Source: Actinomycetes bacterium (GTDB taxonomy: Bacteria > Actinomycetota > Acidimicrobiia > Acidimicrobiales > Ilumatobacteraceae). From it: a stretch of DNA of 49,591 nt. The notes below the pieces were generated by a model, which was not told where the DNA came from, ran no database searches, and saw nothing but the letters and a program-made list of their open reading frames with translations. Location: the NCBI GenBank assembly GCA_027491335.1, contig JAIXWJ010000044.1, positions 1-49,591 of the forward strand. Reading direction: 5' to 3'. Shown piece by piece: positions 23,357 through 26,699 of this stretch; the first letter of the stretch is position 1; every line of letters starts with the position of its first letter. Position numbers and translations under genes: made by a program.

Positions 23357-24361
23357 TCAACTCCGGGCGTTGCGGCGACGAGCCGCCATGCCGGCCAGGC
23401 ACTCGAAGGCCAGCCGGTGCGCCACGTTCACGGTGAGCTCACTCACGTCGTAGGCCGGAGCCACTTCGACGATGTCGACGCCCACCACGTCGTGTTCCAC
23501 GCACAGCGTGCGCACCATGCGCAAGAGATCGGACGACAAGATTCCGCCCGGTTCGGGGGTGCCGGTGCCCGGAGCGAAGGCCGGGTCCAGGCTGTCGACG
23601 TCGATCGAGATGTACAAGTGATCGGCCGAGGCCAACGCCTCGTTCACCGCGTCGTCCATGACCGCCTTGAAGCCGCGGTTCCAGATCTCGTCCATGGTGT
23701 GCCAGCGCATGCCCTGCTCGCCCATCCAGTCGAAGACTTCCTTGGGCGGCCAGTATCCGCGCAGACCCACCTGCACGAAGTTGGGTCCGGGAATCGCGCC
23801 GGATTCGATCAATCGCCGCATCGGCGTTCCGTGGCTGGCCAAGTTGCCGTCGATGATGTTGGCGGTGTCGGCGTGCGCATCGAAATGCACCATGCCCACC
23901 TTGCCGAATCCCTTCACCTCGGCCACGGCGGTGGCGGCGGGCCACGTGATGCTGTGGTCGCCACCGAGGATGATGGGCACGATTCCGCGCGAGGCGATTT
24001 CCTTCACTCGCGTCTTGATGTTGGCGTGACTCGTTTCGGTGTCGGCGTGTGGGCAGTACGCGTCTCCGAAGTCGACCACTTCGAGCCAATCGAAGATTTC
24101 GATGCCCAAGTCCATGTGATACGAGCCGGGTTCGTAGGCCTGGGAACGAATGGCTCGCGGACCGAAGCGCGCGCCCGGTCGGTTCGTGGTGGCGATGTCG
24201 AAGGGGGCACCGACGATGGCCACGTGCGGCCTCCATTCGTCGAGCATCTCGGGGTCCGGAAGGAACGGGCGTTGACCGAACGTGGACAAACCGCCGAACA
24301 CGTAACCGAGTTCCAATTGTTCGCGCATGCCGGGGGAGAGGTCGCGCTTGGGATCGCTCAT
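23357..24361 (-). CDS. Agmatinase/ureohydrolase family protein
   Basis: The 334-residue protein has all Mn-binding motifs of the arginase/agmatinase family: LGGDHS, HFDAHAD and SIDVDSLDPAFAPGTGTPEPGG. Other visible segments are TTNRPGARFGPRAIR and DIVEVAPAYD. The family removes urea from a guanidino compound. Length and the extended N-terminus (about 45 residues before the barrel) fit SpeB-type agmatinases, but guanidinobutyrase, guanidinopropionase and guanidine hydrolase share these motifs, so the substrate is open. A TAGGGT box ends 6 nt before the ATG, indicating a leaderless transcript with no room for a riboswitch. No other polyamine gene is nearby. Confidence 0.9.
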   Translation of the reverse strand: MSDPKRDLSPGMREQLELGYVFGGLSTFGQRPFLPDPEMLDEWRPHVAIVGAPFDIATTNRPGARFGPRAIRSQAYEPGSYHMDLGIEIFDWLEVVDFGDAYCPHADTETSHANIKTRVKEIASRGIVPIILGGDHSITWPAATAVAEVKGFGKVGMVHFDAHADTANIIDGNLASHGTPMRRLIESGAIPGPNFVQVGLRGYWPPKEVFDWMGEQGMRWHTMDEIWNRGFKAVMDDAVNEALASADHLYISIDVDSLDPAFAPGTGTPEPGGILSSDLLRMVRTLCVEHDVVGVDIVEVAPAYDVSELTVNVAHRLAFECLAGMAARRRNARS

Positions 24362-24373: not shown

Positions 24374-24927
24374 CCGACGCCCACGCGATCGATGATCGGG
24401 GACCAAACGCAAGAGAGCCCCGAGGGTGCTGCCGGTTTCCCAGCGCTCCGCTCGGGGCGTCTCCCGTTCGAGAATCCACCAGCGTGCGATCGTCGGTTGT
24501 TACCCTTTGCTCGCTCACTTGATTCGCCCGTCGGAGTTGCCCCCGGCGGGCGAATTGCCATTTCCGGCCCCGACGCATGGTTGCCCTGTCGGCGGTTCCG
24601 GACCTCCCCGTCGGTTTCCCGTCGGATCGGAGTGGACCCTCTCCCGCGGCACCGACTCATCGAATCGCGGTGTCGCTTCGGGGTTTCCCCAGTCGCGCCA
24701 CCGGTGAGACTCGCGTGGTCGTCGCCGTGGTGATTGAACTATGCCGTGCGCGTTTCCGCAGGTCAATGGGTATCTTTCTACCCACATGGTTATCCACGAA
24801 CTTTCGCACTTGTGCACAAGAATCGTCCCGTTGTGCACCGGTCGTCCACATGGATGTCCACAGAAAACGGGTCCTCGTGGACGCTCCACGTTGACTCGTG
24901 GGTCGTGAGCCGGTTGACTGACAACCG
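24374..24927. other. Long non-coding stretch between the agmatinase-like gene and the cimA leader
   Basis: This is by far the longest stretch of the window without a convincing gene; open frames here are Arg/Pro/Ser-rich and lack start signals. Structures seen: a GCCCCGAG/CTCGGGGC stem closing an imperfect rod at about 24412-24463; TTCGCCCG/CGGGCGAA (24523-24530 with 24547-24554); GGTTTCCC three times (24434, 24613, 24682); CGTCGG-type repeats at 24491, 24529, 24587, 24609 and 24620; and DnaA-box-like sequences at 24790-24862. No match to RNase P RNA, tmRNA or SRP RNA core motifs was found by eye. Confidence 0.6.
24790..24862. promoter_or_regulatory. Cluster of DnaA-box-like sequences
   Basis: Within 73 bp: TTATCCACG (24790), TTGTGCACA (24810, palindromic so present on both strands), TTGTGCACC (24831), TCGTCCACA (24842) and ATGTCCACA (24854). 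The three non-TTGTGCAC sites and TTGTGCACA are each one base from TTATCCACA or TTGTCCACA; TTGTGCACC is two. The two TTGTGCAC copies are 21 bp apart, about two helical turns, which would also fit a dimeric regulator of cimA. Confidence 0.45.
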
Positions 24928-24990
24928 ATGAACGCCGTGACCGCACCCCGCATCGCAACCGCCGTTGCGTCGATCATCATTATTCGATAG
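24928..24990 (+). CDS. Isoleucine-rich leader peptide of cimA
   Basis: The 20-residue open reading frame from ATG 24928 to TAG 24988-24990 reads MNAVTAPRIATAVASIIIIR. Four consecutive Ile codons (ATC ATC ATT ATT, 24973-24984) sit just before the stop, with a fifth Ile and several Ala/Val upstream. It is followed at once by a pause-type hairpin and a Rho-independent terminator, and then by cimA, whose pathway ends in isoleucine. This is the layout of a classical amino-acid attenuator: slow translation at the Ile codons when charged tRNA-Ile is scarce would change RNA folding and let transcription continue. The peptide itself is likely unstable and not functional. Experimental proof is lacking. 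Confidence 0.8.
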   Translation: MNAVTAPRIATAVASIIIIR

Positions 24991-25013
24991 CGCACGGGCT
25001 CGTTCTCGTGCGC
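24990..25013 (+). promoter_or_regulatory. Attenuator pause hairpin
   Basis: GCGCACGGG (24990-24998) pairs with TCTCGTGCGC (25004-25013, 9 pairs, one G-U) around a 6-nt loop. It begins at the last base of the leader stop codon, so a ribosome halted at the Ile codons or at the stop would disrupt it. Confidence 0.65.
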
Positions 25014-25017
25014 AGTC

Positions 25018-25044
25018 AGCCGCCTCAGGGCGGCTTTTCTGTTT
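25018..25044 (+). terminator. Attenuator Rho-independent terminator upstream of cimA
   Basis: AGCCGCC (25018-25024), loop TCAG, GGCGGCT (25029-25035), then TTTCTGTTT. It lies 28 nt after the leader stop and 71 nt before cimA, with no gene between. A candidate antiterminator is GGTTGACTG (24912-24920), which can pair with CAGTCAGCC (25013-25021) over 9 positions with one G-U, masking the left arm. Confidence 0.8.
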
Positions 25045-25115
25045 CTCGGGAATGACTCACGGCACGACTCACAGCACGACGATTCACCACACGACGAAGA
25101 AGTGACGGAACCAAC

Positions 25116-26699
25116 ATGAGCAACATGATCGAAGTCTTCGACACCACATTGCGCGACGGCCTCCAGGTGGAGGGTGTCTCGGCATCGGTGGAGGACAAGC
25201 TGCGCATCGCCGAGCAGTTGGACTTTCTCGGCGTGCACTTCATCGAGGGCGGATGGCCGGGGGCCAATCCGAAGGACATCGAGTTCTTCGCGCGCGCCGC
25301 GAAGGAACTGAAGCTCACCACCAGCACGCTCGTGGCTTTCGGTTCCACGCGTCGTCCCAAGGGCAAGGTGGATGACGACGCCACGTTGCGCCATCTCGTC
25401 GATGCCGGCACCAGTGCCGTGTGCATCGTGGCCAAGAGTTGGGATTATCACGTGTTGAACGCGTTGCAGACCACGCTGGATGAGGGCGTGGCGATGATCG
25501 CCGACTCGGTGGAGTATCTGCATGGTCATGGCCGACGCGTGTTGGTGGACATGGAGCATTTCTTCGATGGCTTCAAGCGCAACGAGGAGTTCGCTCTGCG
25601 CGCGTTGGAGGCGGCCGTGGTGAAGGGCGCCAGTCATCTGGTGTTGTGCGACACCAACGGGGGAAGCCTGCCCCACGAAGTGCAAGAGATCGTCGCCACG
25701 GTGAAGCGCCACGTGGGTGACGACGTCACCATCGGCATCCATTGCCATGACGACACCGGTTGTGCCGTGGCCAACAGCATGGCCGCCGTGCTCAGCGGTG
25801 CCCGTCATGTGCAGGGAACGTTGAACGGACTCGGTGAGCGCACGGGCAACACCAACCTCACCACCGTCATCCCGAACCTGCAGTTGAAGTTGGGTTACGA
25901 GTGCCTGCCCGAGGGTCGCCTCGAACGCATCACGGCTGTCAGTAACCACGTCGCCGAGGTGTTGAACCGTCCTCTGAACCCACAGGCGCCGTACGTCGGT
26001 TCGGGTGCGTTCGCGCACAAGGCCGGTTTGCACGTGAGTGCCATCGCGCGCGCCAAGGACGCCTACGAACACGTCGATCCCGAACTGGTGGGCAACGGCA
26101 CGCGATTCGTCGTGAGCGAAATGGCCGGCAAGGCGACCATCGCTATCAAGGCCGAGGAGCTCGGACTCGACATGGATGGTCCGGCGGTCAACCAGGTCAT
26201 CGACGATCTGAAGCGCCTGGAGCACGAGGGTTACCACTTCGAGGCCGCCGACGCGTCGTTGGAGTTGCTCATGCGTCGCGCCACCGGCTGGGAGCAGCCG
26301 TACTTCCGCGTCGAGAGCATGCGGGTGATCACCGACGAGTCCGCCACGGGTTCGTTCACCACCGAGGCCACGGTGAAGGTGTGGGTCGGGCCCGAAGGCG
26401 CGGCCAACCGGCACGTGCACACATCCGAGGGCAACGGTCCCGTGAACGCCATCGACACGGCTCTGCGGGCCGCGGTGTCGCAGGCTCATCCGGGCGTCGA
26501 TCGCATTCACTTGACCGACTACAAGGTGCGCATCCTCGACGGCGGTTCGGCCACCGGCGCCGTCACCCGCGTGTTGATCGATGCCACCGACGGCGAGAAG
26601 TCCTGGACCACCATCGGGGTCAGCCCCAACATCATCGAGGCATCGTGGCGGGCCCTCGAGGAGTCGCTGATCTACGGACTCCTGCACGCCGACGCCTGA
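25116..26699 (+). CDS. cimA: (R)-citramalate synthase
   Basis: The 527-residue protein belongs to the LeuA/homocitrate synthase family. It has an N-terminal TIM barrel with the signature DTTLRDGLQVEGV, VLCDTNGGSLPHEV, metal-binding HCHDDTGCAVANS and GTLNGLGERTGNTNL, and a C-terminal regulatory domain (about 390-520) with GPEGAANRHVHTSEGNGPVNAIDTALR and DYKVRILDGG. Length and sequence match the long CimA type, which condenses pyruvate and acetyl-CoA to citramalate, the first step of threonine-independent isoleucine synthesis. The upstream Ile-rich leader and terminator support this over 2-isopropylmalate synthase, for which a Leu-rich leader would be expected. The C-terminal domain should give isoleucine feedback inhibition. 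Confidence 0.94.
   Translation: MSNMIEVFDTTLRDGLQVEGVSASVEDKLRIAEQLDFLGVHFIEGGWPGANPKDIEFFARAAKELKLTTSTLVAFGSTRRPKGKVDDDATLRHLVDAGTSAVCIVAKSWDYHVLNALQTTLDEGVAMIADSVEYLHGHGRRVLVDMEHFFDGFKRNEEFALRALEAAVVKGASHLVLCDTNGGSLPHEVQEIVATVKRHVGDDVTIGIHCHDDTGCAVANSMAAVLSGARHVQGTLNGLGERTGNTNLTTVIPNLQLKLGYECLPEGRLERITAVSNHVAEVLNRPLNPQAPYVGSGAFAHKAGLHVSAIARAKDAYEHVDPELVGNGTRFVVSEMAGKATIAIKAEELGLDMDGPAVNQVIDDLKRLEHEGYHFEAADASLELLMRRATGWEQPYFRVESMRVITDESATGSFTTEATVKVWVGPEGAANRHVHTSEGNGPVNAIDTALRAAVSQAHPGVDRIHLTDYKVRILDGGSATGAVTRVLIDATDGEKSWTTIGVSPNIIEASWRALEESLIYGLLHADA

What the first reader, a model, noticed from the sequence alone, without database searches (positions are those of the whole stretch)
24928..25044. 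Isoleucine attenuator (leader peptide, pause hairpin, terminator) in front of citramalate synthase
Seen directly: a 20-codon frame with four Ile codons in a row two codons before its stop, a 9-pair hairpin starting at the stop codon, and an intrinsic terminator with a T-rich tail, all within 120 nt and followed by cimA. A possible antiterminator (24912-24920 with 25013-25021) exists. Classical attenuators with Ile-rich leaders are known for ilv operons of enterobacteria; I know of no described one for cimA in this kind of actinobacterium. It also supports the CimA assignment independently of the protein sequence.
Basis: partly seen in the sequence, partly recalled or inferred. Interest (0 to 1): 0.85.

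Follow-up and report, generated by a model that had tools for sequence, protein, structure and literature searches.

The report
Isoleucine-sensing attenuator of citramalate synthase gene
Just before a gene for making isoleucine, this bacterium carries a tiny decoy gene of four isoleucine codons, a hairpin and a transcription stop signal, conserved across many relatives and found again, with matching codons, before its leucine and valine genes, which suggests a shared supply-sensing switch whose last step does not follow the textbook.

Summary
Of 80 relatives' cimA loci, 62 carry the leader; in the 18 without it cimA sits directly behind ilvE. In 62 distinct leaders the stop is TAG, Ile codon 4 is ATT in 61, and hairpin 1 opens at the G of the stop and covaries. 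A promoter-like pair just before the leader start suggests a leaderless transcript, so the proposed antiterminator strand overlaps the -10 and is probably not transcribed. The same anatomy recurs in the order before leuB (Ile/Val codons) and ilvB (Leu/Val/Ile), and elsewhere in the phylum. The window's own genome has three: cimA (IIII), ilvB (LVVI), leuA (LLL). In 144 elements (127 distinct) no upstream RNA pairs with the terminator arm clearly above shuffled controls; folding predicts that ribosome position switches hairpin 1, not the terminator. The closest tested relative is the 2026 M. tuberculosis ilvB1 LVVI attenuator. How hairpin 1 or a stalled ribosome defeats the terminator is open. 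New variant of a known kind; no expression data were available.

The parts
24891..24896 (+). -35-like element TTGACT
   Evidence: promoter score at least 9 in 61 of 62 leaders, 9.5% of shuffles
24928..24990 (+). leader-peptide ORF MNAVTAPRIATAVASIIIIR*, probably leaderless
24973..24984 (+). control codons ATC ATC ATT ATT (four Ile)
   Evidence: conserved in position and largely in synonymous choice
24988..24990 (+). stop codon TAG; its G is the first base of hairpin 1
   Evidence: (62 of 62 TAG)
24990..25013 (+). hairpin 1 (GCGCACGGG/CTCGTGCGC), masked by a ribosome at the stop codon in the model
   Evidence: (covariation)
25018..25035 (+). intrinsic terminator stem-loop AGCCGCC-TCAG-GGCGGCT
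25036..25045 (+). T-rich tail TTTCTGTTTC
25116..26699 (+). cimA, citramalate synthase (regulated gene)
   Evidence: TIGR00977, 696.3 bits, cut-off 450

Best explanation
A ribosome-mediated, isoleucine-responsive transcription attenuator of cimA. Transcription starts at or next to the leader's ATG (24928); a ribosome translates the leaderless ORF. With enough Ile-tRNA the ribosome runs through ATC ATC ATT ATT to TAG, its front covers and melts hairpin 1 (24990-25013), and RNA polymerase stops at 25018-25045, giving an RNA of about 115 nt. When Ile-tRNA is short the ribosome stalls on the first Ile codons, its front stops just short of the TAG-anchored hairpin, hairpin 1 stays folded 4 nt before the terminator, and polymerase reads into cimA. 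Shown by sequence and comparison: the parts, their conservation, the codon-to-pathway match. Computed: ribosome position switches hairpin 1, while the terminator can fold in every state. Inferred: the transcription start, that termination is what is regulated, and that a folded hairpin 1 (or the ribosome held behind it) hinders the terminator by contact or timing rather than by competing for its bases.
For: 62 of 80 relatives' cimA loci carry the leader; in the 18 without it cimA is directly behind ilvE. TAG 62/62, codon 4 ATT 61/62, against ATT 25% of Ile codons in the same species' cimA genes and 1 of 23 in the window's cimA. Hairpin 1 covaries: 7 of 9 pairs have changes on both sides; covariation score of the whole structure 0.218 against 0.099 shuffled. 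Codons match the gene: cimA Ile; leuB Ile/Val (51 of 51 usable with Ile at codon 4); ilvB Leu/Val/Ile (18 usable, 72 of 72 codons); leuA Leu (own genome, L257, L261). Of 90 order-wide hits examined, 90 precede cimA, leuB or ilvB. The own genome has three elements, cimA/ilvB/leuA; next-best match E 1.9. Promoter-like pair at leaderless distance in 61 of 62. Nearest tested case: M. tuberculosis ilvB1, whose four codons LVVI, changed to AAAA, abolish induction (PMC13236596, passages read).
Against: No expression data for this organism. The terminator folds in all modelled ribosome states (group means 0.92-0.99), so equilibrium folding alone gives no switch. If hairpin 1 alone were the ON signal, an untranslated leader would be ON; in C. 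glutamicum ilvBNC a start-codon mutation lowers expression by 80% (PMC11857589, introduction read), the opposite sign, though its anatomy differs. A stall at codon 4 also melts most of hairpin 1 in the model (0.35 kept in the cimA group), although codon 4 is among the most conserved codons; the model does not explain that. S. coelicolor ilvB codon changes were reported to have no effect (cited in PMC1262725). The window's -10 (TTGACT) is poor by the general consensus and the generic scan finds no promoter there. 18 relatives do without the element.
Confidence: 0.83

Rival explanations
1. Classical three-segment attenuator: hairpin 1 is the anti-antiterminator, its 3' arm pairs with the terminator's 5' arm (in many sequences GUG-c-GC with GCCGC) when a ribosome stalled at Ile codon 4 masks the 5' arm.
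For: Partial-transcript folds show such a pairing in many of the 21 sequences shown, the window included; the 5' arm's mean pairing rises from about 0.1 (codons 1-2) to about 0.5 (codon 4, stop) in 62 leaders.
Against: Pairing is no higher than with shuffled terminator arms at codon 4 in any gene group (cimA 0.42 against 0.44, leuB 0.39 against 0.45, ilvB 0.21 against 0.32). Stop-masked partial folds reach 0 to -5.9 kcal/mol in the 21 shown, against about -17 for the terminator. L026, of the GGCGTNCG type, folds nothing in the stop state. A ribosome waiting at TAG would free the same strand, the wrong sign.
Confidence: 0.1
2. A stalled ribosome held behind hairpin 1 stays coupled to RNA polymerase and suppresses intrinsic termination; hairpin 1 only shortens the RNA tether. 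A ribosome released at TAG uncouples and the terminator works.
For: Hairpin-1 length varies (21-31 nt) while the linker to the terminator stays short (-1 to 6 nt); no antiterminator found; hairpin sequence covaries, so shape matters.
Against: No direct evidence; about 60-75 nt separate the ribosome's P site from polymerase at the terminator (my estimate from the sequence).
Confidence: 0.25
3. Not a regulator of termination: an ordinary upstream terminator plus a short translated ORF whose Ile run is incidental, or a signal acting on RNA decay or cimA translation.
For: No expression data; one terminator-like site alone is near chance.
Against: Codon content tracks the downstream pathway across four gene types and many families; stop-hairpin register and synonymous codon choice are conserved.
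Confidence: 0.06

Closest known systems
Mycobacterium tuberculosis ilvB1 attenuator (PMC13236596, 2026; passages read)
   Same: BCAA-rich uORF with four control codons (LVVI), a stop codon (UGA), then a structure said to form on stalling and to be masked when the ribosome reaches the stop, and a Rho-independent terminator; this genome's own ilvB leader ends LVVIL*, also with UGA.
   Different: Gene is cimA, codons IIII, UAG; their model has mutually exclusive antiterminator and terminator, whereas here hairpin 1 and terminator do not share bases in the window. I did not have their sequence to compare.
Corynebacterium ilvBNC attenuator / ilvB-II motif (PMC11857589, abstract and introduction; PMC10272879, passages)
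   Same: BCAA-rich leader, terminator, reporter evidence; in C. glutamicum the leader start codon lies one nucleotide from the transcription start.
   Different: ilvB-II uORF spans most of the first hairpin (P1), and the antiterminator overlaps the terminator; here the ORF ends where hairpin 1 begins.
Streptomyces ilvBHC and leuS leaders; leader peptides before actinobacterial ilvB, and leuA (LEU element) (PMC8079986, passages; PMC1262725, parts 1-2 of 3)
   Same: Short ORFs rich in I/V/L, leaderless in S. lividans; PMC1262725 notes that attenuator components are often missing.
   Different: ilvB ORFs with the codon runs overlap the terminator hairpin; S. coelicolor codon changes had no effect (as cited there); LEU element is a pseudoknot with a stem to the Shine-Dalgarno; I saw no mention of cimA or leuB in the parts read.
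Enterobacterial trp/ilv attenuators (recalled)
   Same: Control-codon run, pause-type hairpin, terminator.
   Different: Antiterminator 2:3 and a Shine-Dalgarno-led leader; neither found here.

Membership tests
Ribosome-mediated transcription attenuator (broad) | Short leader ORF with a run of codons for the pathway's end product | tested here: met
Ribosome-mediated transcription attenuator (broad) | Intrinsic terminator between leader ORF and gene | tested here: met
   (by sequence)
Ribosome-mediated transcription attenuator (broad) | Expression responds to the amino acid through the control codons | not testable with these tools
   no expression data; reported for M. tuberculosis ilvB1 (PMC13236596)
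Classical attenuator (trp type) | Antiterminator that shares bases with, and excludes, the terminator | tested here: not met
   144 elements (127 distinct), pairing not clearly above shuffled arms in any group or state; terminator folds in all states on group means
Leaderless actinobacterial BCAA attenuator | Transcription starts at the leader start codon, no Shine-Dalgarno | tested here: inconclusive
   sequence evidence in favour, no 5'-end data.
Leaderless actinobacterial BCAA attenuator | Structure after the stop that a ribosome at the stop would mask | tested here: met
ilvB-II motif (Corynebacterium) | uORF spans P1; P2 strand pairs with P1 loop | tested here: not met
   for the definition; ORF ends at the base of hairpin 1
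T-box or any other Rfam 15 family | Match at the curated gathering score | tested here: not met
   (whole window: two tRNAs only); sub-threshold only, e.g. RF02502 28.8 against 50 bits over this very region

The most novel reading that the evidence does not exclude
A widespread actinobacterial class of attenuators without an antiterminator: the ribosome's position on four branched-chain codons is read by a hairpin whose first base is the last base of the stop codon, and that hairpin, or the ribosome parked behind it, overrides an adjacent intrinsic terminator without competing for its bases. One genome tunes cimA, ilvB and leuA separately by codon choice alone (IIII, LVVI, LLL), with a preference for less used synonyms (ATT, GTA).
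Probability: 0.4. Interest if true: 0.82.

Novelty: new variant of a known kind. Interest (0 to 1): 0.6.

Why it matters
It adds the isoleucine-committing enzyme cimA (and the leuB-ilvE operon) to the genes that appear to be under leader-peptide attenuation, in bacteria known mostly from metagenomes. It shows one genome using the same module three times with control codons matched to each pathway, and gives a simple anatomical signature for finding such switches. The missing antiterminator, checked over 144 elements, makes a mechanistic question testable: can a ribosome control an intrinsic terminator without an RNA that competes for its bases?

Tried and rejected

2:3 pairing (hairpin-1 3' arm with terminator 5' arm): looked promising (arm pairing about 0.1 rising to 0.5) and in single folds, and by eye for leuB, where hairpin-1 3' arm GGTGTGCGC resembles terminator arm GGTGGGCGG; failed against shuffled arms.

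Leader moved in front of leuB in the 18 operon-type loci: for 10 the stretch before leuB is in hand (9 printed, L067) and I saw no Ile run or terminator there; the other 8 do not reach it. Rfam: nothing but two tRNAs at gathering score, only sub-threshold matches. Literature: 'citramalate synthase' + 'leader peptide', 'cimA' + 'attenuator' + 'isoleucine', 'Acidimicrobi' + 'leader peptide' gave one paper each, none on this by the title and abstract start in the listing (not opened); 'citramalate' + 'transcription attenuation' none; some searches gave the attenuator papers cited. The library lacks most subscription journals. Of PMC1262725 I read parts 1-2 of 3, of PMC11857589 part 1 of 6, of PMC10272879, PMC13236596 and PMC8079986 passages only.

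Rows dropped or chosen. One search examined 86 sequences; before the distinct set I left out L093 (123 nt upstream only), L097 (not oriented; same contig as L013), L101 and L103 (repeats); 64 leaders became 62 distinct. L043 and L082 have only 235 and 136 nt upstream but both show ilvE there. L018, L024, L056, L086 carry substitutions in the run and were kept by typing their run. The search pattern required one codon between run and stop; no locus with a leader needed another spacing. In the promoter test the spacers were limited to 16-19 and 5-9 nt and the start codon was chosen by the score, in shuffles too. From 90 order-wide elements, one search found no stop-hairpin in L185 and L203, and I left out L168, L176, L189, L195, L199, L201, where the finder's pick looked off (L168, L199, L201 end in TGA and may be genuine); the finder itself demands a hairpin next to a stop. 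Eighty-two remained; 82 + 62 = 144 entries, 127 distinct over their first 58 nt. The hits were a cut list of roughly 150 rows (not counted exactly); I examined the top 50 in rank order and 40 picks favouring genomes with two hits. For A2, 84 of 105 prepared sequences were aligned. One search failed (one wrong coordinate) and was repeated without that protein and one other (L131).

Full report
WHAT IS THERE. The window (contig C66 of a 2.52-Mb draft genome; closest named relatives are Ilumatobacteraceae and other Acidimicrobiia or Actinomycetota metagenome assemblies) has, upstream of cimA (25116-26699; TIGR00977 citramalate synthase), a 20-codon frame MNAVTAPRIATAVASIIIIR* at 24928-24990, a 9-pair hairpin at 24990-25013 whose first base is the G of TAG, and a terminator-like hairpin at 25018-25035 with a T-rich tail.

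CONSERVATION. The cimA protein fetched 80 relatives' loci (the best 80 of 578, so close relatives). Of these, 59 have a run of at least three Ile codons one codon before a stop, and three more have the same leader with substitutions (L018 IIMI, L024 IMLI, L056 ITII). The 18 others have no leader, and in all 18 the cimA match begins within about 55 nt of the end of the ilvE match, i.e. in one operon. No locus in which cimA is not directly behind ilvE lacks the leader (62 of 62). In 62 distinct leaders (window included, drawn) the stop is TAG in 62, codon 4 is ATT in 61, and codon 1 is ATC in the 58 scored. In the cimA genes of the same species ATT is 25% of Ile codons, and in the window's cimA 1 of 23, so even the synonymous choice is conserved. 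The rest of the leader peptide drifts.

STRUCTURE. On the alignment of 62 leaders (57 distinct rows) the two hairpins pair in 95.5% of cells; 8 of 17 pairs have changes on both sides (7 of 9 in hairpin 1, 1 of 8 in the terminator), and the covariation score is 0.218 against 0.099 in shuffles, with 0 of 500 shuffles as high and slid versions at 0.076 or below. Two hairpin-1 types, GCGCACG/CGTGCGC and GGCGTNCG/CGTNCGCC-like, occupy the same place. The terminator stem is nearly invariant, so it says little by covariation.

PROMOTER. Upstream of the leader start, 61 of 62 leaders reach a promoter score of 9 (9.5% of shuffled upstream sequences do); the best spacer is 17 nt in 50 and 18 in 12 (16-19 allowed); the best -10 ends 6-9 nt before the start codon (5-9 allowed); SD-like four-base words occur in 4 of 62. 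The start codon was chosen as the in-frame one with the best promoter, in the shuffles too. In the window: TTGACT 24891-24896, 17 nt, TTGACT 24914-24919, 8 nt, ATG. The generic sigma-70 scan finds no promoter here because it requires A at position 2 of the -10; relatives with CAGACT, GATACT or CACAAT fit the consensus better.

THE SAME ANATOMY ELSEWHERE. A covariance model of the cimA leaders hits 157 of 298 genomes of the order at E up to 0.001. I examined 90 of the listed hits: 13 precede cimA, 55 leuB, 22 ilvB, none another gene (by protein match; samples confirmed by NCBIfam: L129 leuB, L140 ilvB). In some of these genomes leuB is followed directly by cimA, in others by ilvE. Control codons follow the gene: in 51 usable leuB elements codon 4 is Ile in 51, with mostly Val and Ile before it; in 18 usable ilvB elements all 72 control codons are Leu, Val or Ile, and 27 of 40 Val codons are GTA, which is 6.6% of Val codons in the 62 relatives' cimA genes, a set of other genomes. 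Terminator arms mostly differ by gene (GCCGCCC, CCGTCCACC, CCTCCC), while hairpin 1 mostly keeps a GCGCAC/GTGCGC-like base, with exceptions such as GAACAC, GAGCAC and GGCGTG.

OWN GENOME. Reading upstream of ilvB (TIGR00118 over cut-off) and leuA (TIGR00970 over cut-off) gave two more: MNANRISEASVMSFTLVVIL* with TGA whose G opens a 10-pair hairpin, then a terminator; and a GTG-started MTFLTGLLLM* with TAG, hairpin and terminator. Each has a -10-like element 7 nt before its start codon (my reading). A model of all groups finds in the own genome these three (E 2e-13, 7e-10, 5e-6) and then E 1.9; all three were in that model's training set. The genus-mate G002, none of whose elements is in it, also has three hits; I did not check the genes behind two of them. 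The window's leuB-ilvE pair has no such leader (my reading; no hit there).

PHYLUM. The combined model hits 75 of 396 genomes drawn from the phylum. Of 26 loci examined from beyond the order, 24 have a protein match to a BCAA gene downstream: 16 ilvB, 4 cimA, 2 leuB, 2 leuA (L261; L257, TIGR00973 over cut-off). L245 ends before the gene. L234 has a small unknown ORF and then a prephenate-dehydratase-like protein (below curated cut-offs), not a BCAA gene. The cimA leaders there read TVIID, TVIIT, RIIGS and IIIIA; the leuA leaders LLLLM and NLLLT.

NO ANTITERMINATOR. With a ribosome mask at codon 1, codon 4 or the stop, I asked whether the terminator's 5' arm pairs with upstream RNA before its 3' arm exists. 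In 144 elements (75 cimA, 51 leuB, 18 ilvB; 127 distinct) native pairing is close to or below that of shuffled arms in every group and state (cimA at codon 4: 0.42 against 0.44; the only excess is 0.14 against 0.13, ilvB at codon 1). The RNA in this test lies 3' of the ribosome mask, so pairing with the earlier part of the leader was not tested against shuffles; unmasked single leaders do show some such pairing (mean 0.48 without a ribosome). In complete exposed RNA the terminator forms in all states (group means 0.92-0.99), while hairpin 1 goes from 0.97-0.99 (codons 1-2) through 0.82-0.86 (codon 3) and 0.35-0.48 (codon 4) to 0.04-0.20 (stop). Single-sequence terminator minima as low as 0.00 (cimA) and 0.07 (leuB) occur at codon 4. 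Masks assume that the ribosome covers about 13 nt from the first base of the A-site codon (recalled). So ribosome position is read as hairpin 1 on or off.

HOW IT MOST LIKELY WORKS. Fed cells: ribosome at TAG, hairpin 1 masked, termination. Starved cells: ribosome on the first Ile codons, hairpin 1 folded against its front and 4 nt from the terminator, readthrough. This matches the direction proposed for M. tuberculosis ilvB1, where LVVI to AAAA abolished induction and a short terminated RNA was mapped (PMC13236596); there the authors draw a mutually exclusive antiterminator. Here the link from hairpin 1 to the terminator is not base competition as far as folding shows. I consider direct obstruction by the folded hairpin, or a stalled ribosome kept coupled to polymerase, both unproven; destroying the leader start codon separates them. 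Why codon 4 is so strongly conserved is not explained by this model.

KNOWN AND NEW. Leader peptides rich in branched-chain residues before ilvB and leuA, some leaderless, are known in Actinobacteria (PMC1262725, PMC8079986, PMC11857589, PMC10272879), and PMC1262725 already notes that attenuator parts are often missing. The searches showed nothing on cimA or Acidimicrobiia attenuators in the held library. New here, to that extent: cimA and leuB(-ilvE) as targets, the stop-codon-anchored register over many families, three codon-tuned copies in one genome, and the tested absence of an antiterminator. Hence: new variant of a known kind.

Noticed in passing
L244, L237, L245, downstream of the hit: In three loci a small ORF of about 100 aa (MKFEIYNGEHVGTAEW...-like) follows the attenuator, in L244 and L237 just before ilvB; a similar one lies behind a VLLIT leader before a prephenate-dehydratase-like gene in L234. 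Function unknown.
   Followed up: partly
L040, L050, L057, L059, L061, L067-L070, L075 and the 8 other operon-type loci: 18 relatives have cimA directly behind ilvE and lack the leader; in the 10 with the stretch before leuB in hand I saw no Ile run or terminator, so control seems lost rather than moved.
   Followed up: partly
leuB and ilvB elements of L129-L205: Val control codons are mostly GTA (27 of 40 in ilvB, 28 of 45 in leuB elements), against 6.6% in the relatives' cimA genes; codon 4 of leuB elements is ATT in 42 of 51. Less used synonyms may sharpen sensing.
   Followed up: partly
L206 1501-2484: The own genome also encodes a likely threonine ammonia-lyase (best match TIGR01127, 335 bits for the fragment given, below its cut-off of 379), so citramalate synthase may not be its only route to 2-oxobutyrate.
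   Followed up: partly
window 23357-24361 (-): An agmatinase-like gene (TIGR01230, 210 against 174 bits) lies on the other strand between ilvE and cimA in the window and several relatives, splitting the leuB-ilvE-cimA order seen elsewhere.
   Followed up: partly
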